From: a virus
Length of the DNA: 64,000 bases
Strand: one strand, 5' to 3'
IMG/VR virus record: IMGVR_UViG_3300034782_000062
Location: 62,001 to 126,000 of that record
A program made the position numbers and the translations under genes. Position 1 is the stretch's first letter. Every line of letters starts with the position of its first letter. The notes under the pieces are model-generated. The model searched no databases. It was not told the DNA's origin and saw only the letters and a program-made list of their open reading frames with translations. Below, in pieces: positions 20,365 to 43,402 of this stretch.

Positions 20365-20395
20365 CCTGGTCACTCTGAGAAAGTGGCCAGGGCTC
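20365..20395 (+). ncRNA. Leader hairpin, loop class II-like, before cas12m
   Basis: A 10-bp stem CCTGGTCACT/AGTGGCCAGG (one T-G pair) around CTGAGAA, followed by GCTCC and the ribosome site AAGGAGG. It belongs to the same family as the hairpins before other accessory genes, so the effector gene shares the phage's leader architecture. Confidence 0.6.
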
Positions 20396-20409
20396 CAAGG
20401 AGGCAACAA

Positions 20410-22146
20410 ATGTCCAGAACCATCGTTTTCAATTTTGGAGGCCGTGCACCAACAAAAAACGCACAGCTCGTTCATGACAACATCTACCACGGGCACAACT
20501 ACTACAATAAGCTCATCGAGCTAGAACGTTGTTACCGCAAGGCAATTCGCGCAGCCCAAGCCGAGTTCCCGGAGATCGCAAAAGCTCAGGCACTCTTCGA
20601 TAACGCTGAAGAGGCTGTTGACGGATTGATCGCGCTAAAAAAACTAGCCAAGTCAAGCGACTCAAGTATTACTCCACCAACGCCCGATGAAATGAAAAAG
20701 GCTGTTGCCGAAAAGAAGGCGGCGGCTGCAGCTCTCAAAGACGCCAAGGCCCCTCATGCTGATTCATTGCAAACCAAATACAAGGCAGCCAAGGATGAGC
20801 TAACGGCATCTATAAAAAAGGCTCGATCCGAGACCGAAACTTTCTGGGGAACCTATCTGTGCATCGAGCGAGCGTTTCAGCAAGCCAAGAAAGCAAAGCC
20901 TATTTTTAAGCCTGGCAAAAAGCGCCCCCCATGGACCGAACGGCCAGCGTGGCGAAAATGGACAGGCCATGGTGTTGTTGGCATGCAAATTCAGAATGGG
21001 ATGCCAGCAGAGAACCTGTTCAAACCTAACACGAGATGTTACATAGATCCCCTTCCAGCCAATGCGTACAACACGAACATTCCCCGTGGCCAACGCCGCA
21101 AGATGCAATACACAACCATCCATTTGCGCGTAGGATCTGAAAACAGAAAACCCATATGGGCTGACATCCCCGTTTACCTGCACCGGGGCTTTCCTGCTGG
21201 CGCGATTGTCAAATGGGTATGTGTTATCCGAACCCCATGGCATCAACATCAAGCCTACAAATGGCAGGTACAAATCACTCTTGAGGTCCCCGACGCTTTT
21301 CCAAAAACCAACAAAAAAGCCGTTGCCATTAATTTAGGTTGGCGCAAACTAGCCGATGGATCCCTTCGAGCAGCCACCTGGGTGGATACTGACGGTCAAT
21401 CGGGCGAGATTATTCTAAGCGACAAGGAATTCAGAGATCGTATTGAAAAATACAACAACCTACGATCGATTCGAGACAAACTGATCGATGAAATCCGGCC
21501 TAAGCTCATCATGTCCGGCATCAACTGCGCCAAATGGAAAAGCCCCGACTCTTTTCAAAAACTTTCTCGTCGCGAAGACTTAACCGACGAACAGAGCGCA
21601 ATTTTGAAACCCTGGGCCTACAAAGATAGGCATCTCAATTGGTATGCCCGTGGTGTAAAAAATGGCGCCCTAAACCACCGGCGCGATGTCTATCGAAAGT
21701 TCGCTCTTTACATAGCGACAAACTACGACATCATCATCGCCGAAAAATACGACATGAAGAACATTGTCGAAGACGAAGATCGGAAAAGAGGTCCAGCGGG
21801 TCAGCGGGTTGAAGCTGCCCCATCCATTGCCAGGCAGATCATCGGCAGCACCGCGACACGGCTCGGGTGTCACATTATCGAGGGCCAAACCACATATGCA
21901 ACCCAAGAGTGCTTTTTTTGCGGTTGCACAGAGCCATGGGATGCCTCTGGTAACATCATGCACACCTGCCAGGAATGTGGTGAACATTGGGACCAGGACA
22001 TCAACAATGCCAAGAACATGCTCGCGAGAGCCGCTGATGCAATCAACTCCCTGGACCCGCTCGCACCTAAAAAGTCAAAGAATTACGGATGGAAATCGGT
22101 ACAAGAAAAGAAAAAACAAGGAGATAACGAAGACCACACTGATTAA
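20410..22146 (+). CDS. cas12m: Cas12m-like type V CRISPR effector, probably nuclease-dead
   Basis: 578 residues; ATG 20410 behind AAGGAGGCAACAA. The length and segments match Cas12m (type V-M, formerly V-U1/C2c4) as I recall the Mycolicibacterium protein: an N-terminal region with a long helical pair, then RuvC-I VAINLGWR, KWKSP..F, KDRHLNWYARG..., RRDVYR, RuvC-II IIAEKYDM, a CX2C-X15-CX2C zinc ribbon (C501, C504, C520, C523) and RuvC-III WDQDINNAKNML. RuvC-I has Asn308 where active nucleases have Asp; Glu445 and Asp528/Asp530 are kept. Cas12m is known to process its own crRNA, need no tracrRNA, and silence DNA by binding. The array starts 64 bases downstream. The gene is visibly more AT-rich than its neighbours, suggesting transfer. 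Confidence 0.85.
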   Translation: MSRTIVFNFGGRAPTKNAQLVHDNIYHGHNYYNKLIELERCYRKAIRAAQAEFPEIAKAQALFDNAEEAVDGLIALKKLAKSSDSSITPPTPDEMKKAVAEKKAAAAALKDAKAPHADSLQTKYKAAKDELTASIKKARSETETFWGTYLCIERAFQQAKKAKPIFKPGKKRPPWTERPAWRKWTGHGVVGMQIQNGMPAENLFKPNTRCYIDPLPANAYNTNIPRGQRRKMQYTTIHLRVGSENRKPIWADIPVYLHRGFPAGAIVKWVCVIRTPWHQHQAYKWQVQITLEVPDAFPKTNKKAVAINLGWRKLADGSLRAATWVDTDGQSGEIILSDKEFRDRIEKYNNLRSIRDKLIDEIRPKLIMSGINCAKWKSPDSFQKLSRREDLTDEQSAILKPWAYKDRHLNWYARGVKNGALNHRRDVYRKFALYIATNYDIIIAEKYDMKNIVEDEDRKRGPAGQRVEAAPSIARQIIGSTATRLGCHIIEGQTTYATQECFFCGCTEPWDASGNIMHTCQECGEHWDQDINNAKNMLARAADAINSLDPLAPKKSKNYGWKSVQEKKKQGDNEDHTD

Positions 22147-22209: not shown

Positions 22210-22922
22210 GTCACAAAGGCTATCTCTACAGCCTATGAGTAGAGACATGTAGACGCTTCGCAAACATTCTGTCCTCAAAGGGGTCACAAAGGCTATCTCT
22301 ACAGCCTATGAGTAGAGACAAGTTAGAATTCTTGATCAAAATGCTTCCATTGTTAAGGTCACAAAGGCTATCTCTACAGCCTATGAGTAGAGACGGATAA
22401 ACAGCATCGTAAACTCCACCCTCTGACAGGTCACAAAGGCTATCTCTACAGCCTATGAGTAGAGACAGGACGAGAGGCCGCTGAGGAGCGAGATGTGCGG
22501 GCACGAGTCACAAAGGCTATCTCTACAGCCTATGAGTAGAGACCGGAGCAAGCCCAGGATGTACTCGTGCTCGAAGGACGAAGTCACAAAGGCCATCTCT
22601 ACGGCCTATGAGTAGAGACATCGGTTGTCTTCCTCTGTAAACGATATTTCCCGTCCTGTCATAAAGGCCATCTCTACGGCCTATGAGTAGAGACACTGTA
22701 GAGTAGGGCAGTCCGGTTCCGTTAGCTACGTCCGTCACAAAGGCTATCTCTACAGCCTATGAGTAGAGACTTGCTCCATTCTGAACCGAACCAAACTTGC
22801 GCCTTGGTTGTCATAAAGGCCATCTCTACGGCCTATGAGTAGAGACAGCCCAACTTCAGCACTGGTTCGAGCCGCCGATAGGTGTGTCATAAAGGCCATC
22901 TCTACGGCCTATAAGTAGAGAC
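22210..22922 (+). CRISPR. CRISPR array, 10 repeats of 37 bp and 9 spacers
   Basis: Repeats start at 22210, 22283, 22358, 22430, 22507, 22583, 22658, 22734, 22810 and 22886. Spacers are 35-40 bp. Each repeat begins GTCA(C/T)AAAGGC and ends GAGTAGAGAC. Repeats 1-5 and 8 read AGGCT...AGCCT, and repeats 6, 7, 9 and 10 read AGGCC...GGCCT: a compensatory pair. The last repeat has an extra G-to-A change, marking the distal end and giving the same direction as cas12m. A possible pseudoknot pairs positions 8-12 with 21-25 and 15-20 with 30-35. No cas1, cas2 or tracrRNA is nearby. No spacer match inside the window was noticed by eye. Confidence 0.97.
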
Positions 22923-22973
22923 CGATAGAGATACGTCGACGCTGGGGTCACATAACAACACAGGAGGTACAAC

Positions 22974-24098: not shown

Positions 24099-25385
24099 AT
24101 GAGGACGAGCGACAGCGCTCTTGAACAGTACGAAGAATGTCCAAGGCAATACGACCTGGAGCGCAACCAGAAAAAGCGTGGGAAGCCAACCGCTCCCATC
24201 CGGCTCGGCAGAGTCGTTCACCGAACAATTCAGAAGCTCCTCAAGAAGTACAAGGAAGCGGGAGAGGCCAAGCCCTTCGACGCTTCACTCGCCTCCGACA
24301 TCTACACCGAGGAATGGGGGAAGGAGCTGGGTCTGAGCGGCAAAGAGCTTTTTACCGACGGACTGCAGATCGTCGCCGACTGGGTTGAGAAGTGGAGCAT
24401 CCCTCTCGACCCCCACTCCATCCTCGGCATCGAGGAGCCCTTCAAGTTCACCATTGAGTATCGTCCCCAGGATGATGAGTATGATGACGAGGAGGAAGAG
24501 GAAGAGACGGCGATCGAGCCCAGCAACCTCATGCCCGTGGAGGTTGTCGGCTACCTAGACCTTGTCCTCGGACACGATCTAGTAGACGAGGAGACGGGCG
24601 AAGTCGAGACTCTCATCGAAGTCATCGATTGGAAGACGACCAAGGCGTTTCTCACGAGCCGGGACGCACAAGAGTCGCTCCAACTCTCCATCTACGATCT
24701 CGCCGCTCGCGAGAAGTGGCCTGACGCCAGGGCCTACCGCGCCGCACTCAATCTGCTGCGTGACGGCACTCACCTTCAGGTTCGCCACAGCACCGCCGAG
24801 CGCCGCGACACCGAACGATACATCCTGGCGACGGCGGCTCAGATACGCGACGAGCGAGAGTGGGCTCCACGGCTCAACTCCAACTGCACCTACTGTCACC
24901 ACCGCCACGACTGCCCCGCCTACCAAAAAGCCCTCAAGGGCGACAGCCACACCGTCGCCGAGGACATGAATGACTTTGACAAGCTCATCGAGGAGCGTGC
25001 TGCGCTTGCAATCCGAAAGAAGATCGTCGGCAAGCGGCTCGACGAAATCGACGACGTCATCAAGGCACACCTCAAATCATCCAAACACCCGCTGGAGATC
25101 GGCGGCTGGTTCTTCAAGCTCTCATCTGTCGAGCGAAAGAACTATCCAGCCGACGTCGTCATCCCACTGCTCGCTCACAAGTTCGACATAAGCCCCGCCG
25201 AGCTGCTCGCCGACCTGACGACTGTCTCCACAAAGAAGCTCAAGGAGCTGATGAAGACCAAAGCCGAAGAGCTTGGGCGCGAGAAGGTCAGCCTCGTACA
25301 AGCCACCCTTGAAAGCAAAGCCGAACGCAACTACTCCTCTCGGCTGTACAACCGAAAGGAGAAGAAGCCCAAACCCAAGAAATAG
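24099..25385 (+). CDS. PD-(D/E)XK nuclease, RecB/Cas4-like with Fe-S cysteines
   Basis: 428 residues; ATG behind ACAGGAGGGAAATTCATC. The start SDSALEQYEECPRQYDLE is the PDDEXK_1 opening with the first cluster cysteine. The nuclease core follows: GRVVH, then VVGYLDLVLG (Asp), IEVIDWKTTK (Asp..Lys) and QLSIYDLAA. The remaining cysteines CTYCHHRHDCP complete a likely 4Fe-4S site. The C-terminal 140 residues are helical. Phage members act as recombination exonucleases, often with a helicase; an SF2 helicase lies 2 kb downstream. Although Cas4-related, it is a general phage enzyme and not evidence of adaptation. A palindrome copy lies in the coding sequence near 24463. Confidence 0.8.
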   Translation: MRTSDSALEQYEECPRQYDLERNQKKRGKPTAPIRLGRVVHRTIQKLLKKYKEAGEAKPFDASLASDIYTEEWGKELGLSGKELFTDGLQIVADWVEKWSIPLDPHSILGIEEPFKFTIEYRPQDDEYDDEEEEEETAIEPSNLMPVEVVGYLDLVLGHDLVDEETGEVETLIEVIDWKTTKAFLTSRDAQESLQLSIYDLAAREKWPDARAYRAALNLLRDGTHLQVRHSTAERRDTERYILATAAQIRDEREWAPRLNSNCTYCHHRHDCPAYQKALKGDSHTVAEDMNDFDKLIEERAALAIRKKIVGKRLDEIDDVIKAHLKSSKHPLEIGGWFFKLSSVERKNYPADVVIPLLAHKFDISPAELLADLTTVSTKKLKELMKTKAEELGREKVSLVQATLESKAERNYSSRLYNRKEKKPKPKK

Positions 25386-32241: not shown

Positions 32242-32636
32242 TGCAAGACGACGAAAAGGAAAAAACCGCTCTGGAGCTACTCGGAGAGTGGCACCAGCAC
32301 GTCGAAGCCATCGACAGTCTCGAAGACCGTCTACGGGAGATGCGAGAGATGGACGACCCGTGCCTCATCTGCATGGAGGCCATCGCCATGGTTATCTCTA
32401 CCAACCGCGTCCTGAAGGAGTCCATGGACTCCATCGCCAAGCAAATCTCCTCTGGGGGCGCAGACCTCGAAGGCATGACCTTCATGATGAACCTGTACAA
32501 CCAGTGGCACACCATTGCGAGCGCCTGCGTCATGAGGATGGCTCACGCGGGGCACAGAGAAATTGAAGCGGCCCAGGTCGTCCGTGCCGATGGCTGCATC
32601 AAAGAAACTTTCAACCGAACAATCACGGACTCATAA
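32241..32636 (+). CDS. Hypothetical helical protein
   Basis: 131 residues; starts in TGATG. Mostly helical (LEDRLREMREMDDPCLICME). CLIC is the only cysteine pair. Probably coupled to the previous gene. No family is recognised. Confidence 0.5.
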   Translation: MQDDEKEKTALELLGEWHQHVEAIDSLEDRLREMREMDDPCLICMEAIAMVISTNRVLKESMDSIAKQISSGGADLEGMTFMMNLYNQWHTIASACVMRMAHAGHREIEAAQVVRADGCIKETFNRTITDS

Positions 32637-32667
32637 ACACAATTCCGAGGAGAACAGGAGAACCACC

Positions 32668-34251
32668 ATGGGTATCAAAGGACTTCAGACCAGGATGGCA
32701 ATCCTGGGTCACATCAAAATCGGGGGTAAGAAGAAGGTCAACCGCCCAGCGGACAAGGGTGGTCCCTACCTGCGACCGGTGAAGTTCGACCACTTCGTCG
32801 TCACCACGACGGACCAGGACGAGCTGGGCTACATCAAGGACGATGTCCTGATGAACAAGCTTATGAGTGACCAGCTCAACATTCTCGTCGCCGAACATAC
32901 CGAGAAAATCTATAACGAGGGCGGCGAGCTGGTGAAGACAGTCCAGACCATCTCCACCGATGAGCTGCGCAAGCAGAACAGCGTGCTGCGCCGCATCCTC
33001 GTCGCGCTCCCCTTCGACGACCCCGACCAGAACCTCGTAACCTCGCTGGCCATCTACGATCGTGAGGGCTGCCGGTGCCGCGGTGATGCCGAGAGCGCCG
33101 ACTGGGTCGATCCTCGCACCGGCGAAGTCTCGAAGGTCAAATGCCCCTGCAACCTCTTCATGGCCAAGCTCCATCCTGATGACGAGCCTGACCAGCGCCC
33201 TGCTCACGAGAAGGGCCTCAAACCCAATCCGAAGAAGGGCGTCACCTGCAAGGCCAATGGCAACCTGCGCGTGATGATCGCCCGCGCCAAGACGCTCGGC
33301 GGAATCCACCAGTTCCGTACAACCTCGATGAACTCCATCACCCAGCTCATGGCTGCCATGAACCAGGTACGGGAAATCACTGGTGGGCTACTGGCCGGCG
33401 TTCCGATGGCGCTGGAGGTCTACCCCAAGAAGGTGAGCCCCGGCCCAAACCAGAAGCCGCAGACCGTCTACGTCGTTACACTGACTCACCGCGCCAGCAT
33501 CAACGACTTCCTCCGTGACGTCGCTGAGCAGACAGCTCTCAGAGAGAGCATGCGCAAGCAGATCGCCGCCAAAGAGATCCTGGAGCTTCCAGCGCCTGGC
33601 ATGGAAAGCCGCTTCGAGCAGGTCGCGATCGGTCAGGAATACTATGGTACCGAAGCCGCTGCCTTCGTCTCCGCGACGGGCGAAGAACTCGCAGCACTCC
33701 CAGAGGTCGTCGCAGATGTGTCCGGGGAGGAGCGGGAGAAGGCTGATGAGCCCAAGAAGAAGACCGGGTCCAAGAAGCAACAGGGCGACGAAAGCGCCGA
33801 GAAGGCCCCTGAGAAGACCGAAGAGCCTGAGCCGACCGAGGAGTCTGGACAGAGCGAAGCGCCTCAGGAGGAGGCTCAGCCGCCTCAGGAGAAGGCTCAG
33901 AGCCCTGATGAGGACCAAGGCAAAAATTCGTCGGGGGACGGCTCTGACAGCAAGGACGACGGAACTGCCGATAGTCCTCAGGATGATCCAGGAGACCAGG
34001 GAGAAAATCCTGAAGACGAAGAAAGAACTCAGCTCCCTGATGTCGACATCGAGCCACCTGAAGGGGCGGATATGTCGAACGCCAGCAAGGACTTGCGCAA
34101 GTCGTTCTTTAAGAAGGCACGCTCGGCTGGATTCACCGACAGTGCAATCCGTGACTGGATGAGTGAGCTGTGGAACATCCAGTCCTCGGCCAAACTCCTC
34201 ACCTGGCAGACGGAGGCGATGATCGCAGCCATCGACGGCCTGAAGAAATAG
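32668..34251 (+). CDS. Gp3-like recombination directionality factor-type protein
   Basis: 527 residues; ATG 32668 behind AACAGGAGAACCACC. The start MGIKGLQTRMAILGHIKIGG, the later cysteine block (CRCRGDAES ... CPCNLF ... GVTCKANGNLRVMI) and the GGIHQFRTTSMNSI segment fit the actinophage Gp3/RDF-like family (phiC31 gp3 is a recombination directionality factor that lets a serine integrase run in reverse). Residues 350-460 are an acidic, low-complexity linker, followed by a C-terminal 60-residue helical domain. No integrase is in this window, so a role other than excision control is possible. Family recognition is from memory. Confidence 0.55.
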   Translation: MGIKGLQTRMAILGHIKIGGKKKVNRPADKGGPYLRPVKFDHFVVTTTDQDELGYIKDDVLMNKLMSDQLNILVAEHTEKIYNEGGELVKTVQTISTDELRKQNSVLRRILVALPFDDPDQNLVTSLAIYDREGCRCRGDAESADWVDPRTGEVSKVKCPCNLFMAKLHPDDEPDQRPAHEKGLKPNPKKGVTCKANGNLRVMIARAKTLGGIHQFRTTSMNSITQLMAAMNQVREITGGLLAGVPMALEVYPKKVSPGPNQKPQTVYVVTLTHRASINDFLRDVAEQTALRESMRKQIAAKEILELPAPGMESRFEQVAIGQEYYGTEAAAFVSATGEELAALPEVVADVSGEEREKADEPKKKTGSKKQQGDESAEKAPEKTEEPEPTEESGQSEAPQEEAQPPQEKAQSPDEDQGKNSSGDGSDSKDDGTADSPQDDPGDQGENPEDEERTQLPDVDIEPPEGADMSNASKDLRKSFFKKARSAGFTDSAIRDWMSELWNIQSSAKLLTWQTEAMIAAIDGLKK

Positions 34252-37749: not shown

Positions 37750-38898
37750 CTACGCCGCGTGGTCAGCTACATCGTTCCCTACAAACCTCGGTATTGAGGC
37801 CGGGGCGCGCGGGCCTCGGCCAAAGTCGTTGCGGAATTTGTTGCAGACACCATCTTCCCCAAGCATAGGGCATCGCCATCCTTCTGAAGCGATGCGCTCA
37901 CACGTAATGGGTCCGCCCATAGTGCGAAGGATGTTTTCGTACTTTTTTTCTGTGGTTTCGTGATTGTAGCGGCCCTTGTCACAAGCAGATATCTTGTGAA
38001 AGAGCGCTCGGCCACCATGAGGGTCGTAGCACGCGAGATTCGCTGCCAACGCGATCCATTCGAAGTACGTGAGCCCACTCTCGCAGGCGTACTGAATGAA
38101 CTCGCAACCGCCAATGATCATGTCGAGGTCACTGGCGTTGCTGTCCTGAAAACTCTCTCTCCCATCGAAGGACCCACCTCGGCTTCTCTTCGCCGGGCTG
38201 TCCTCCAGCACATCCAACCTTCCGATTTCTCCAAGAGCATCAACCACGTCCAGCCGATTTACTGGATCGTAAAGCTCGATCATATCCCACGTCGGCTCGC
38301 CGAGAGGGACGGTATTGAACTGCTGATCGAGCAGCATAGAACCGTTTCGTGTATTCGCCGCTTCCATGTTGAGCGGCATGGCTATCTGGTTACCGATCGA
38401 TCGGCCACCAGGCAGCGTGTCTTGTGTTGGGAAAATTCTATCGAGTGCGCCACCCTCACCAAGGGTCGGCAACTCGCACATCTCTATAAACGCCTCCATG
38501 AAGCGCCTGGCCACCCAGACCTCCATGGGCTTCAAGTCGCCACGAGGGTCGTCAAAGATGATGCGAACGTGAACGCCACGCCCTGACTGGCTGGTGTTGC
38601 ACAGGGGGTCGATCCCGTACTCTCTAAAAGTGTCAGCGAGGGCCTTTGCGTGTTCGAAGGCGTTACCGTGATGACCATCGAAGTCAGCGGCAACCCACTC
38701 GCAGGTTCCGTCAGCCAAGAAGGGATAGGCACCAATCATGATATCGCCCTTCATATGTCGGACGATTACGTCGTTAGTTAGCTTGTACTCGGGAAGGCGC
38801 CGTGGTCTGTAGCTTCCATCAGCGATACGAAAAGCGTATACATCCGGTCGACCACAGAAAAATCTTTTAAAATAGAAGAGCTTCTCTTTCGGAACCAT
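37750..38898 (-). CDS. Archaeo-eukaryotic primase (TOTE type)
   Basis: 382 residues; ATG behind GGGGGAGGGG. FFCGRPDVYAFRIADGSYRP at the N-terminus, the catalytic VAADFDG (D-x-D) near residue 71, the SQSGRGVHVRIIF motif near residue 105 with its histidine, and FPTQDTLPGGRSIGNQIAMP near residue 160 match the AEP primase domain described in TOTE conflict systems. A PriCT-like helical C-terminus follows. AEP primases make RNA or DNA primers. Position with the helicase suggests phage replication rather than conflict. Confidence 0.75.
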   Translation of the reverse strand: MVPKEKLFYFKRFFCGRPDVYAFRIADGSYRPRRLPEYKLTNDVIVRHMKGDIMIGAYPFLADGTCEWVAADFDGHHGNAFEHAKALADTFREYGIDPLCNTSQSGRGVHVRIIFDDPRGDLKPMEVWVARRFMEAFIEMCELPTLGEGGALDRIFPTQDTLPGGRSIGNQIAMPLNMEAANTRNGSMLLDQQFNTVPLGEPTWDMIELYDPVNRLDVVDALGEIGRLDVLEDSPAKRSRGGSFDGRESFQDSNASDLDMIIGGCEFIQYACESGLTYFEWIALAANLACYDPHGGRALFHKISACDKGRYNHETTEKKYENILRTMGGPITCERIASEGWRCPMLGEDGVCNKFRNDFGRGPRAPASIPRFVGNDVADHAA

Positions 38899-38910: not shown

Positions 38911-40425
38911 TCACCGTTTTGACAGCCTCGCCTTTATGATTTCGACATTCTTCGGTTCCCTCTCGACAAGGATGAAGTTTCTCTTCAGCCGTTTACAGGC
39001 CAAGCCAGTAGTGCCAGTGCCGGCGAAGTTGTCGAGGACGAGGTCGCCAGGATTTGTAAGCCTCTCAACGAGCCACTTGAGCACAAACTCGGGACGCTCC
39101 CCTAGGTGCCGAAGAGCCTTGCGCCCCTTGACGGTCGCACCTTCAATGAAGTTGTGCATCTGCTTGGGACCCTTCCAATGGAAGGCGTTGCGCTTATCAG
39201 CGCCCATGCAGGCCGTCACGATAAACTGACACGTATCCAAAAACGTTGTTTTCTTCGAGCCAGTGTCGGGATTTGTTAGGTGCCAGGTTACAACCTGTAC
39301 CATGTCGAAGCCGTTGCTTATCAGAGCCTCACGAATAAAGCTCACGTAGCGCTCGTCACAAAAAACAGCGATATTCCCGCCCGTCTTGATGACGCGCGCC
39401 CACTCGTGCGCCCAGACTGAAACCTCATCCAGCTTCAGTTCGCTGTTCCAGTCCTCAAAGACGTCGAGCGCCTCGGTCTCTTCGAGCCGGTCACCGTAGC
39501 CAGTGTCCTCTTTGTAGTCGGGATCGACAATGATGTGATCTACCGATTCTCTTTCAATATCGTTGATATGATCTTGACATCGAATATCAGCATCGATGCT
39601 CTTGATACTTTTAGCTTCTTCGATCAGCTTGTCTTCGCGCTTCTGCTTATGCATCGCAAGAGCGGCGCTATTGATCGATGACTCACCCTTGAAAACTGCC
39701 TGCACCGCGGGATGTTCCATCCAGTTTTCGCCAAGTTCTTCCTTGGCCTGATTTATAATTGCAGCAGCACGCGCAACTTTCATCGGCGGCTGACCGATGG
39801 CCTTGCCGACTTCGTTGCGAGTCAAACGACGTTTCGGCTTGGGCTTCTTGGCGATCCTCAGTCCGCCCTCTTCCCGATCCTCGTCGTCCTCAGGATGTTC
39901 GATCTCAATCTCTGTGTCATCCGACTTTCGGTAGACGCTTGCTGGTCCGCGGCGCCCCTTGCGACCACCTTCTGCTTGCCGCTCCTTGTTCTTCTCGAAC
40001 TCTTTGTCCCAGATCGCCTCGACCTCCATCATGATCTGACGCTCCGACTTACGCCGGTAAGCGTTGTGCATGACGATGGCCTCAACGGTCTCGTCGTCGG
40101 TCTCGTAGTCACGCCAGACGACCGGAACTGTCGGCATCTTCAGGGTGATGGCGGCTTTATGGCGACGGCGACCGGAAATGATGAAGCACGTTGCACGATC
40201 GACAACGATGGGCTCGATCATGCCGCGCTTACTGATATCCGAGATCAGGTCTTTATCCGGCTCGTCACCGTAAATTTGCTGGTTGCGCGGGTGAGCCTTG
40301 ATCTCGTTCGGTGAGACCAGCTCGATTGTTTCTTTGCGGGGTGCTGGGGGTAGGTTCTTTTCGTGCGCGGATTTAATAATCCTACGACGGCCTGGATCGG
40401 CCTTGTTTTCCGCTCGCGCTGTCAT
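38911..40425 (-). CDS. ParB domain - DNA methyltransferase fusion
   Basis: 504 residues from ATG 40425 (behind AGGGGACTGTGGTTCT); the open frame continues to 40479. Residues 35-120 are a ParB domain (IELVSPNEIKAHPRNQQIYG, ISGRRRHKAA, YRRKSERQIMMEV). Residues 275-504 are a beta-class N6/N4 DNA methyltransferase: motif IV DPDY (the usual form is DPPY), WAHEWARVIKTGGNIAVF and the SAM-binding LDNFAGTGTTGLA at the end. ParB-methyltransferase fusions are known in phages and may protect phage DNA. The DPDY variant may alter activity. Confidence 0.8.
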   Translation of the reverse strand: MTARAENKADPGRRRIIKSAHEKNLPPAPRKETIELVSPNEIKAHPRNQQIYGDEPDKDLISDISKRGMIEPIVVDRATCFIISGRRRHKAAITLKMPTVPVVWRDYETDDETVEAIVMHNAYRRKSERQIMMEVEAIWDKEFEKNKERQAEGGRKGRRGPASVYRKSDDTEIEIEHPEDDEDREEGGLRIAKKPKPKRRLTRNEVGKAIGQPPMKVARAAAIINQAKEELGENWMEHPAVQAVFKGESSINSAALAMHKQKREDKLIEEAKSIKSIDADIRCQDHINDIERESVDHIIVDPDYKEDTGYGDRLEETEALDVFEDWNSELKLDEVSVWAHEWARVIKTGGNIAVFCDERYVSFIREALISNGFDMVQVVTWHLTNPDTGSKKTTFLDTCQFIVTACMGADKRNAFHWKGPKQMHNFIEGATVKGRKALRHLGERPEFVLKWLVERLTNPGDLVLDNFAGTGTTGLACKRLKRNFILVEREPKNVEIIKARLSKR

Positions 40426-40450
40426 AGAACCACAGTCCCCTATTAAAAAG

Positions 40451-40635
40451 GCAGCAAGGTCCCGCGTGCCCGCCGCCAAGATGGCGGGGGTTTATATGAA
40501 ATCTCATCTTTTCCAACCGAAAGGCAAAAGGAAAAGATGGGGTTCCACCTTAGCGGACGGCACCCGAGGCCTTGCTGCGTTCGATTATCTTACGTTTGCT
40601 TTTCACCTTTCGGTTGTTGAGATTTCATATAACCC
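40451..40635. ncRNA. Gene-free region with interlocking inverted repeats
   Basis: GCAGCAAGG (40451-40459) pairs with CCTTGCTGC (40570-40578). A second set (GGGTTTATATGAAATCTCA, 40488-40506, and CAACCGAAAGG, 40514-40524) pairs with 40606-40635 and crosses the first, which would be a pseudoknot in RNA. A local hairpin (CATCTTTTCC 40504-40513 with GGAAAAGATG 40530-40539) puts CAACCGAAAGG in its loop. A GCCCGCC-type hairpin lies at 40468-40489. It is either a structured RNA, the leader of the minus-strand methyltransferase gene, or a protein-binding site. The strand is unknown. Confidence 0.5.
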
Positions 40636-40680
40636 GTCCGAACAGACTGCCTGAGATCGCACCGCCGCGTCAACTTAATT

Positions 40681-40695
40681 AATCCTGAGGACGGC
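40681..40695 (+). repeat. Dispersed palindrome copy, TGA core
   Basis: AATCC-TGA-GGACG. Copies right of 40 kb mostly have TGA or TCA in place of CCA. A second copy (40764-40777, AATCC-TGA-GGACG) follows 80 bases later, before the lysin gene. Confidence 0.5.
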
Positions 40696-40796
40696 ATTAT
40701 TTCTCTAACAGCCCATTAATTTTGTTGGAAAAATTGCAGATCCCTCCTGGTGCGCTGGAAATGAATCCTGAGGACGAATATGGTAGGATGGCAGGG

Positions 40797-40820
40797 CTCC
40801 CTGTTGTGGGAAAACAAGGG
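40797..40820 (+). ncRNA. Leader hairpin before the lysin gene
   Basis: CCCT-G-TTGT pairs with ACAA-GGG around GGGAAA, then TCAATTTTAAAGGAGGGATAGC and the start codon. The loop is similar to class II. It links the lysin gene to the leader family. Confidence 0.4.
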
Positions 40821-40842
40821 TCAATTTTAAAGGAGGGATAGC

Positions 40843-41583
40843 ATGCCACCCCCAATCGCACAGGTTCTCGGCGTCGTTGGCGTCACAGGTTCTGCAGCCG
40901 CGATGCTGATGGTCCGCCTCATGGAAGGGCAGTACGCTGGCATCACCGATGGCTCGTTCGTCATGCAGTACACCGAAGGACACGGCCTTCGTGATCGCTG
41001 GGGGCCGCACATTGTAGACAACGGTCGCTTCTCACGCGGTTGGGGAATGCGAACCACCAGTGAAGGTGTGCAACGCCCTCATGGCGGCATCGACCTATGT
41101 GGGCCTCAAGGGACAGTCGTTCGGGCGATGCGCACAGGGCTCGTCGAGCACAGCGACCAAGGCAATGGCTATGGGGAATGCATCCTTCTTCGGCACGTCG
41201 ATGGAACGACGAGCTTCTACGCACATCTCAATGAACGAGCTGTGACCCAAGGGATGCTGGTCATGGGCGGCTCACCCATCGGAACGATGGGGCGCACCTC
41301 TGGAACTGGAAGCATCCCCAGCGAGCGCTTCCAGATGGGTGGCCCTATGGACCGTCGCTGCCGTCACTTCGCCAACATGGGTATCCACCTTCACTTCAGT
41401 ACCCATGGTTACGGTCAGGAGCGCCTGCCTCACCAGCGGCGAATGCGCCAAACCGTCAGTACCGACAAAGAGTGGCAGTACGGATCCGACCCCGTGCAGA
41501 TTCTCGGCGCCCACGGCACCAGACAAGTGGCCCAGCAAGCTATTGCCTGTTCACCGTGGAGCCGCGACTGGGCTACCGCTTGA
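40843..41583 (+). CDS. M23-type peptidase (probable endolysin)
   Basis: 246 residues; ATG behind AAAGGAGGGATAGC. The metal-binding motif HGGIDL (H-x3-D, near residue 81), YGECILLRHVDGTTSFYAHL and the HLHFSTH motif (HxH, near residue 184) define an M23/LytM peptidase, which cuts peptidoglycan cross-links. An N-terminal hydrophobic stretch (QVLGVVGVTGSAAAMLMVRL) may be a signal anchor. Nearby small membrane proteins could be the export and holin part. It could also be a virion-associated lysin. Confidence 0.75.
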   Translation: MPPPIAQVLGVVGVTGSAAAMLMVRLMEGQYAGITDGSFVMQYTEGHGLRDRWGPHIVDNGRFSRGWGMRTTSEGVQRPHGGIDLCGPQGTVVRAMRTGLVEHSDQGNGYGECILLRHVDGTTSFYAHLNERAVTQGMLVMGGSPIGTMGRTSGTGSIPSERFQMGGPMDRRCRHFANMGIHLHFSTHGYGQERLPHQRRMRQTVSTDKEWQYGSDPVQILGAHGTRQVAQQAIACSPWSRDWATA

Positions 41584-41708
41584 GCTTCCGCAGGCACCCA
41601 ACAATCGCCTGAAACACGTCACGACAGAATTTTAAAACCCCCCGGTCAAAAAGAATGCAGATCCCCCCTCGTTTGGTGTTGGGTCGTCGGCTGCTCTGAG
41701 TGTGTCGT

Positions 41709-42060
41709 TAAGATTTAAGTAAGTCGTACATGCCTAGTAGTATGATGCCCCTAACTAAGAGCAAAAGCCTAGGTACTGTTACTTAAAGATCTTAGGGGCA
41801 TGAAATACTTGAACAGTGTTCTTGGTATTTTAATCAGCAAGTAGTAGGCCAGACCTTGCTAAGAAAAGGACATGCTGGAGCTGTCAGCAGGGCTGAGGTC
41901 CCCACTGAGGTTTGAGCTAAGCAGAAGCCCCTTGTGCTGAACTTGGGGTCGACCACTAACCTTTCGGGGAGCTGAAGACCGAGAGGGTTGCTGTCCCAGA
42001 CCCCCAGATTGCTAAAGGGAGAGGCAGAAACATTTCGGAGAGCTAGAGACCCGAGGGTTG
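41709..42060 (+). ncRNA. Candidate large structured non-coding RNA
   Basis: This is part of a 577-base stretch (41584-42160) without a gene. A strong helix (41739-41743/41805-41809 extended by ATGCCCCTAA 41745-41754 with TTAGGGGCAT 41792-41801) competes with TAAGATTTAAGT (41709-41720) pairing with 41781-41794. ACTGTT/AACAGT (41775-41780 with 41812-41817) could form a pseudoknot. Two similar 30-base units (41961-41990 and 42031-42060), both with TTTCGG-GAGCT and ending GAGGGTTG or GGGTTG, lie 70 bases apart. A large ornate phage RNA (ROOL/GOLLD style) is possible but untested. Confidence 0.5.
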
Positions 42061-42086
42061 TCAGTCATCCTGACGATGCAAAAACC

Positions 42087-42142
42087 TTGACGTTGCAGAT
42101 GCCATATTGCAGAATGGCGCCATCCCAAAACCGCAACGTCAA
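42087..42142 (+). promoter_or_regulatory. Hairpin and possible promoter before the 42161 gene
   Basis: TTGACGTTGC (42087-42096) and GCAACGTCAA (42133-42142) form a perfect 10-bp stem. TTGACG with a 17-base gap to CAGAAT (42110-42115) also reads as a weak sigma70 promoter. If both work, the -35 box lies in an operator-like arm. No clear ribosome site precedes ATG 42161 apart from GAGGTAGG. Confidence 0.35.
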
Positions 42143-42160
42143 AACGCGAGGTAGGTCAAA

Positions 42161-42715
42161 ATGGCAGAGGAAGAGACCAAGGCGACGGAAAAAAAGGAAG
42201 AAGCTCAGACCCCACCGAAGGCGCAGGTGACGCCGCCGCCGACAGGCCCAGGTGGAGCACTCGAAGAAATCCAGAAGCGAGCGGTAGGCGGGAAGGTCGC
42301 TGTCTTGGAGAAGGGCGACAAAGAGCCGAAGATCGTTGGCGGCAACGGCGAAGGCGAAACGCCGCCCGAGGCTGAAGCCGATGGCAAGACCGATGGTGAG
42401 GCCAAAGAGCCCGAGCCCCCCGCTGCTTCTCCAGGCATTCCAATCTCTCCCGACGCTGCAGAAGACCTGAAGATGGTCATGGATGAGATCGGCCAACTCG
42501 AACGGCAGGCCGGTCAAAACGCGATTCAGTTTCATAGTGCGATGAAGCAGATCGAAGAGAAGGCTTCCGAGCTGCGGACGGATTTCAATTCCATCGTGCG
42601 GCGACTCGGGAAGCGTTTCAACGTCCCTCAAGGCTGGGTGCTCAACCTCGACACCATGAGTTTCGTCCCTCAACAGCAGGGAGCGGGACAGACGGGGATG
42701 CCTCCGCTACAATAA
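42161..42715 (+). CDS. Hypothetical protein with disordered N-terminus
   Basis: 184 residues. The first 95 are Glu/Lys/Pro/Gly-rich and unstructured. Residues 100-160 are helical (KMVMDEIGQLERQAGQNAIQ), probably a coiled coil, with a short conserved-looking end (NVPQGWVLNLDTMSFVPQ). That ending is common in phage proteins of unknown role. It lies 15 bases before the next gene. Confidence 0.55.
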   Translation: MAEEETKATEKKEEAQTPPKAQVTPPPTGPGGALEEIQKRAVGGKVAVLEKGDKEPKIVGGNGEGETPPEAEADGKTDGEAKEPEPPAASPGIPISPDAAEDLKMVMDEIGQLERQAGQNAIQFHSAMKQIEEKASELRTDFNSIVRRLGKRFNVPQGWVLNLDTMSFVPQQQGAGQTGMPPLQ

Positions 42716-42730: not shown

Positions 42731-43402
42731 ATGGCCGCATTTACCAGCGACGTTCTCCAGGAATACGTCAGGCTCTGCGAAACGGAGTTCAAGGTTAAGC
42801 TTGTCGAAAAAAAGACGAGCATTTTTATGAAGATGATCGCGGTGATCCTCTTCTTTAACAAGAACTTCATGACGAGCTATGTCACGACAATCGGGCGCAC
42901 TGTCTACTGGCCCGACCTGGAGGAGAGGTTCAGCAAATACCCGGAAAACTCTTTCAGAACGATGTTTCATGAGACGCAGCACGCTCATGATGGCAGCGTC
43001 TTCAAGATTGTTTACGAGTTGAGCTACCTCTCGCCTCAAATCGGGGGCCTGCTCTCGCTGCTCGCATTCATGGCGATTACGTTTAGCAATGCTTGGCTCC
43101 TCGCACTCCTCGCACTGGTCCTCATCGCGCCCTTCCCTGCATACTTTCGAGCGCATTGGGAGTTCCGCGGCTCGTCTTGCAACATGGCTTACAGAATTTG
43201 GACGGACGACAGGGTCAGCGACAGGTACAAGGACTTTCTTGTCCAGCGGTTCAAGGGTCCGGACTACTACTTCATGTGGCCCTTTCCAAAGAGCGTTCGC
43301 AAAAAGCTGGCGAAGATCGAACAGCGCATTCGCGCTGGCAAGCTGACAGAGGTGCAGAGAAAGACTCATGTCTTTCTTCAAAACCATGGTATCATCAGCT
43401 AG
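42731..43402 (+). CDS. Membrane protein with a HETQH zincin motif
   Basis: 223 residues; ATG behind GGAGGTGGCCC. HETQHAHD near residue 79 is an HExxH metalloprotease motif with a further histidine and aspartate. It is followed by two hydrophobic segments (near residues 100-135: GGLLSLLAFMAITF..., LLALLALVLIAPF). Soluble phage proteins with this combination are not familiar to me. A membrane-bound peptidase, possibly in lysis or entry, is inferred. The C-terminus is basic. Confidence 0.6.
   Translation: MAAFTSDVLQEYVRLCETEFKVKLVEKKTSIFMKMIAVILFFNKNFMTSYVTTIGRTVYWPDLEERFSKYPENSFRTMFHETQHAHDGSVFKIVYELSYLSPQIGGLLSLLAFMAITFSNAWLLALLALVLIAPFPAYFRAHWEFRGSSCNMAYRIWTDDRVSDRYKDFLVQRFKGPDYYFMWPFPKSVRKKLAKIEQRIRAGKLTEVQRKTHVFLQNHGIIS

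What the first reader, a model, noticed from the sequence alone, without database searches (positions are those of the whole stretch)
41584..42160. A 577-base gene-free stretch with repeated and competing helices
The region after the lysin gene contains a 15-bp interrupted stem, a competing 12-bp pairing, a possible pseudoknot and two similar 30-base units 70 bases apart. Phages are known to carry very large ornate RNAs of unknown function (ROOL, GOLLD), often in gene-free stretches of this length.
Basis: partly seen in the sequence, partly recalled or inferred. Interest (0 to 1): 0.7.

Follow-up and report, generated by a model that had tools for sequence, protein, structure and literature searches.

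The report
Orphan folded gap beside phage lysin
A gene-free stretch in a large, so far unmatched phage genome does contain more matching arms than chance gives, possibly a small RNA switch, but it matches no known giant RNA and no relative was found to prove it.

Summary
The gap 41584-42160 lies exactly between an M23 peptidase gene and the next operon and is non-coding by codon use. Its helices are real in the sequence. There are four perfect inverted repeats of 8 bp or more, against a shuffle mean of 0.53 (0 of 300 shuffles reach four). Two of them (9 and 10 bp) cross, as a pseudoknot or a two-state element does (4 of 2000 shuffles); the two rival folds are computed at -20.9 and -22.8 kcal/mol. 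The two 33-base units are a true duplication (0 of 500 shuffles). Global folding is unremarkable (z -1.85 and +0.38). No Rfam family matches, nor do the ROOL or GOLLD models, whose controls were silent. No relative was found, so covariation cannot be tested. Best reading: a structured intercistronic leader on the + strand with a bistable 5' element, acting in cis on the genes from 42161. It is not shown to be a ROOL/GOLLD-like RNA. More striking things lie nearby: a Cas12m-like CRISPR locus with ten repeats, a long hairpin at 40485-40640 (z about -5), and repeated GTCC-CCA-GGAC hairpins in front of start codons.

The parts
41584..42160 (+). Gene-free intercistronic stretch between the M23 peptidase gene (40843-41583) and the gene 42161-42715
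   Evidence: ORF lists and codon scoring; Pfam M23 hit for the upstream gene; GC 0.50 against 0.57 for the record
41596..41684 (+). 8-bp perfect inverted repeat ACCCAACA / TGTTGGGT (41596-41603 / 41677-41684)
41656..41669 (+). 14-base box TGCAGATCCCCCCT, also present (13 of 14) in the M23 leader at 40735-40748 and nowhere else in the record within 2 mismatches
   Evidence: sharing between the two gaps reached in 8 of 300 shuffles, so suggestive only
41709..41794 (+). Stem S1: 41714-41722/41779-41787 (9 bp) with outer extension 41709-41713/41790-41794 (5 bp) and possible inner pairs 41726-41729/41773-41776 and 41734-41737/41769-41772
41745..41801 (+). Stem S2: ATGCCCCTAA / TTAGGGGCAT (41745-41754 / 41792-41801), 10 bp; its 5' arm lies in the apical loop of S1, its 3' arm overlaps the S1 extension
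41873..41889 (+). Short hairpin with AGCU in its loop (UGCUG-GAGCUGU-CAGCA); not favoured in the global fold
41909..41929 (+). Short hairpin with AGCU in its loop (GGUUU-GAGCUAAGCAG-AAGCC); not favoured in the global fold
41958..41990 (+). Repeat unit U1; hairpin 41960-41986 with an 11-base loop GGAGCUGAAGA, formed in the global fold
42029..42060 (+). Repeat unit U2, the partner of U1; hairpin 42033-42056 is weak (-6.0 kcal/mol for 42028-42061) and is replaced in the global fold by pairing with 41679-41703
42087..42142 (+). 10-bp perfect inverted repeat TTGACGTTGC / GCAACGTCAA (42087-42096 / 42133-42142), ending 18 bases before the start codon at 42161
42087..42115 (+). Promoter-like match TTGACG-17-CAGAAT (9 of 12), overlapping the inverted repeat
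   Evidence: 2 matches in the 2.4-kb region against 0.9 expected, so weak

Best explanation
The gap is the structured intercistronic leader of the operon that starts at 42161, read on the + strand. Its 5' part (41709-41801) is a bistable element. S1 forms while the chain is being made; when the last bases of 41792-41801 emerge, S2 can take over or add to it as a pseudoknot. The middle holds a duplicated hairpin, and the 3' part ends in a 10-bp stem shortly before the ribosome site of 42161. I infer that the leader tunes expression of the downstream genes in cis (transcript end, stability or access of the ribosome). Shown: the helices and the duplication exceed shuffles, and the stretch is non-coding. 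Computed only: the two near-equal folds. Inferred: transcription, the + strand, the switch and its effect.
For: Four perfect inverted repeats, 0 of 300 shuffles; crossing 9/10-bp helices, 4 of 2000 shuffles; S1-forced fold -20.9 and S2-forced fold -22.8 kcal/mol for 41705-41806, with the growing chain in an S1-type fold up to 41799 and S2 at 41803, five lengths tried; duplicated unit, 0 of 500 shuffles; co-directional genes on both sides; a shared 14-base box with the M23 leader, where it can pair perfectly (9 bp) with that gene's ribosome site AGGAGGGAT (17 of 2000 shuffled leaders reach 9 bp).
Against: Overall folding energy is ordinary (z -1.85 for 41700-42160; +0.38 for 41840-42078). Two near-equal folds are common in any RNA and no shuffle test of bistability was made. 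Perfect pairing of the ribosome site of 42161 with the rest of the gap is no better than chance (1887 of 2000 shuffles reach it). U2's hairpin energy is no better than that of randomly mutated copies of U1 (68% of 3000 do as well). No relatives, no transcript data. The statistics were chosen after the feature was seen.
Confidence: 0.4

Rival explanations
1. The inverted repeats are DNA-level sites: a promoter and operators for phage or host regulators between two transcription units, with no special RNA.
For: The 10-bp repeat 42087-42142 overlaps a promoter-like match TTGACG-17-CAGAAT. The 8-, 9- and 10-bp repeats contain only Watson-Crick pairs and so are equally dyads in DNA. The GC dip of the gap fits a regulatory region. 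The divergent gap 40480-40842 also holds long inverted repeats.
Against: The arms do not share a common sequence, as repeated operators would; loops of 36-73 bases are long for a single dimer site; the crossing arrangement of S1 and S2 has no obvious use in DNA.
Confidence: 0.25
2. A free-standing ornate RNA of a new family, of about 450-550 bases, acting in trans.
For: Length similar to the 574 positions of the ROOL model; non-coding; several helices beyond chance; duplicated hairpin; four AGCU loops, the densest such cluster in the record's 182,770 bases.
Against: No Rfam match, ordinary folding energy, no relatives, no promoter-like match at the 5' end of the gap and no + strand terminator-like match inside it.
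Confidence: 0.13
3. Residual, mostly neutral spacer with some chance helices and a decayed duplication.
For: Ordinary z-scores; U2 hairpin no better than mutated U1 copies; other stretches of this record match single features of the gap.
Against: Several features exceed shuffles at once; phages seldom keep half a kilobase of unused DNA (general knowledge).
Confidence: 0.17
4. A CRISPR mini-array or an RNA antitoxin (type III toxin-antitoxin), suggested by two similar 30-base units about 70 bases apart upstream of a gene of 184 aa.
For: Unit length and spacing; the same window does carry a Cas12m-like gene with a ten-repeat array at 22210-22923.
Against: The units differ in sequence from the array's repeat and are degenerate, with two copies only. 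The downstream 184-aa and 223-aa proteins match no Pfam, PHROG or NCBIfam family, toxins included.
Confidence: 0.03

Closest known systems
ROOL RNA (Rfam RF03087)
   Same: Phage-borne, about 570-580 bases of gene-free DNA, predicted pseudoknots
   Different: No match to the model; no tRNA in the window; ordinary folding energy; no conserved relatives
GOLLD RNA (Rfam RF02032)
   Same: Phage-borne non-coding stretch
   Different: No match to the model; many GOLLD members exceed 800 bases (PMC12286853, passages), the gap is 577
OLE RNA symmetric kissing loop
   Same: Palindromic tetranucleotide loops, AGCU among them, are reported to pair between two OLE molecules (PMC12286853, passages); all four AGCU of the gap can be drawn in hairpin loops
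   Different: Only one of the four AGCU is unpaired in the computed ensemble; no sequence or structure match to any Rfam family, OLE included
Bistable leader switches of bacteria and phages in general (recalled, no call)
   Same: Two mutually exclusive or crossing helices with near-equal computed energy in a leader
   Different: No ligand, no partner, no conservation and no clear expression platform found

Membership tests
ROOL (RF03087) | Match to the covariance model | tested here: not met
   No match at E up to 10 over 41400-42300, none in the record. Caveat: no control genome rang
ROOL (RF03087) | Frequent neighbourhood of tRNA islands (typical, not strictly defining) | tested here: not met
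   ARAGORN finds 0 tRNA genes in the 64-kb window; statement on tRNA islands from PMC12286853 (passages)
ROOL (RF03087) | Homo-octameric RNA cage | not testable with these tools
   Needs cryo-EM or native mass measurement
GOLLD (RF02032) | Match to the covariance model | tested here: not met
   No match at E up to 10; 2 candidates in the record scored, none passing. Caveat: no control genome rang
Any of 4227 Rfam families | Match at gathering score, or at E up to 10 in the gap | tested here: not met
   0 matches in the window, 0 in 41400-42300 at E up to 10; in 40400-42200 five chance-level matches far below their gathering scores, none inside the gap
Conserved structured RNA (any) | Compensatory changes in relatives | tested here: inconclusive
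   No relative of the gap or of its close syntenic context found
CRISPR array | Near-identical repeats with even spacers | tested here: not met
   Two units only, with mismatches and a gap; unlike the real array at 22210-22923
Type III toxin-antitoxin | Downstream toxin gene of a known family | tested here: not met
   42161-42715 and 42731-43402 match no Pfam or PHROG family and no NCBIfam family
Integrase attachment site | Next to an integrase gene | tested here: not met
   The only tyrosine integrase found lies at record position 134430-134957, about 30 kb away; no serine recombinase was found

The most novel reading that the evidence does not exclude
A self-associating phage RNA of a new kind: a bistable pseudoknot element followed by hairpins that display the palindrome AGCU, so that RNA copies join by symmetric loop-loop pairing as OLE does, and the state of the pseudoknot decides whether the loops are free. 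All four AGCU of the gap can be drawn in hairpin loops (0 of 1000 shuffles for AGCU; 2 of 1000 when any of the 16 palindromes may reach four), and no other 190-base stretch of the record holds four. Against it, three of the four are paired in the computed ensemble, and 13 of 312 real tiles reach four or more with some palindrome.
Probability: 0.05. Interest if true: 0.75.

Novelty: new member of a known kind. Interest (0 to 1): 0.3.

Why it matters
Large phages carry many gene-free stretches whose role is unknown. If the two-state element works, it is one more phage RNA switch, placed just after a cell-wall peptidase gene. The check also shows that resemblance in length and ornament to ROOL and GOLLD is not evidence of kinship: a stretch can hold several significant helices and still fold hardly better overall than shuffled sequence.

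Tried and rejected
Rfam over the window, the gap and its surroundings: nothing. ROOL and GOLLD models on the whole record: nothing, controls silent. RF01998 was queried by mistake for GOLLD; it is a group II intron model, and it gave no match.

Relatives: proteins next to or near the gap in viral contigs (helicase-like 904-aa gene, M23, PrimPol: none; 223-aa neighbour: three remote relatives L002-L004 without a matching gap; blastn of the gap against them gave only chance-level pieces; ORF lists of two of the three, L003 and L004, show no large gap before the gene). Same neighbour in genome contigs: one remote hit in Nitrosomonas mobilis, 35%, its surroundings not examined. The same protein has no match in phage records. 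DNA patterns of the units: two exact hits, both inside ORFs, judged chance. S2 pattern: none. blastn of the gap against phages and plasmids: only short pieces with E of 0.5 or worse.

GAGCT clustering as such is not unusual in this record. G-U use in the unit stems was considered as evidence for the + strand; not kept, because four AGCT loops can be drawn on the minus strand too. Sequestration of the ribosome site of 42161 by the gap: no better than chance. Selection on the U2 hairpin: not supported. Attachment site: no integrase nearby. Three literature searches bore on the finding (ROOL/GOLLD; hairpins before ribosome sites; structured phage RNAs) and one on Cas12m; passages were read in three papers, of the rest only listings were seen.

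Full report
What was examined. The window is positions 62001-126000 of a 182,770-base IMG/VR virus record. The gap 41584-42160 lies between a + strand gene with an M23 peptidase domain (40843-41583, Pfam E 3.9e-18) and a + strand gene of 184 aa (42161-42715), followed by a 223-aa gene (42731-43402) that contains an HETQH motif (read by eye) and has three remote relatives in other viruses. A codon-use score trained on 61 long ORFs finds no coding-like ORF of 30 aa or more in the gap.

Noticed in passing
window 20383-22146 (+) and 22210-22923: A 587-aa Cas12m-like effector (PDB chain 23vw_A, E 4.1e-54; PADLOC Cas12f/Cas12u1, E about 1e-84) directly followed by a CRISPR array of ten repeats with nine spacers of 35-40 bases. 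No spacer matches the record beyond itself in full length; the longest other match is 16 bases. The array has no match among phage records. A review describes subtype V-M as enriched in plasmids and present in some prophages (PMC11656645, passages), so a copy on a large phage-like record may be of interest.
   Followed up: partly
window 40485-40640: A very stable long hairpin (15-bp outer and 11-bp inner perfect arms, z -4.9 on + and -5.2 on -) in the divergent gap between the ParB/methylase gene and the M23 gene; no match in Rfam above chance, none in phage records beyond chance pieces, none of its outer arms in viral contigs.
   Followed up: partly
window 8897, 9633, 10366, 12888, 13964, 14865, 18402; L009 12372: A small hairpin GTCC-NNN-GGAC (often GTCC-CCA-GGAC) occurs 32 times in the record against about 3 expected; 8 of the 32 sit just before a Shine-Dalgarno-like sequence and start codon, against 6% of random positions. 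It may be a recurring 5' end or processing signal of this phage.
   Followed up: partly
window 40735-40748 and 40831-40839: In the M23 leader the box TGCAGATCCCTCCT contains ATCCCTCCT, perfectly complementary to the gene's ribosome site AGGAGGGAT: a possible translational off-switch.
   Followed up: partly
window 32563-34251: A protein with a Gp3-like recombination directionality factor domain (Pfam E 5.3e-31), although no serine recombinase was found in the record; the only integrase found is of the tyrosine type at record position 134430-134957.
   Followed up: partly
window 37750-38898 and 24099-25385: An archaeo-eukaryotic primase (AEP-TOTE, Pfam E 1.9e-31; PADLOC PrimPol) and a Cas4-like exonuclease on the same record as the Cas12m-like locus.
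   Followed up: no
window 42731-43402: Protein with an HETQH (HExxH-type, read by eye) motif and long hydrophobic stretches; remote relatives in three virus contigs (L002-L004) and one Nitrosomonas mobilis contig (L018); no Pfam, PHROG or NCBIfam family.
   Followed up: partly
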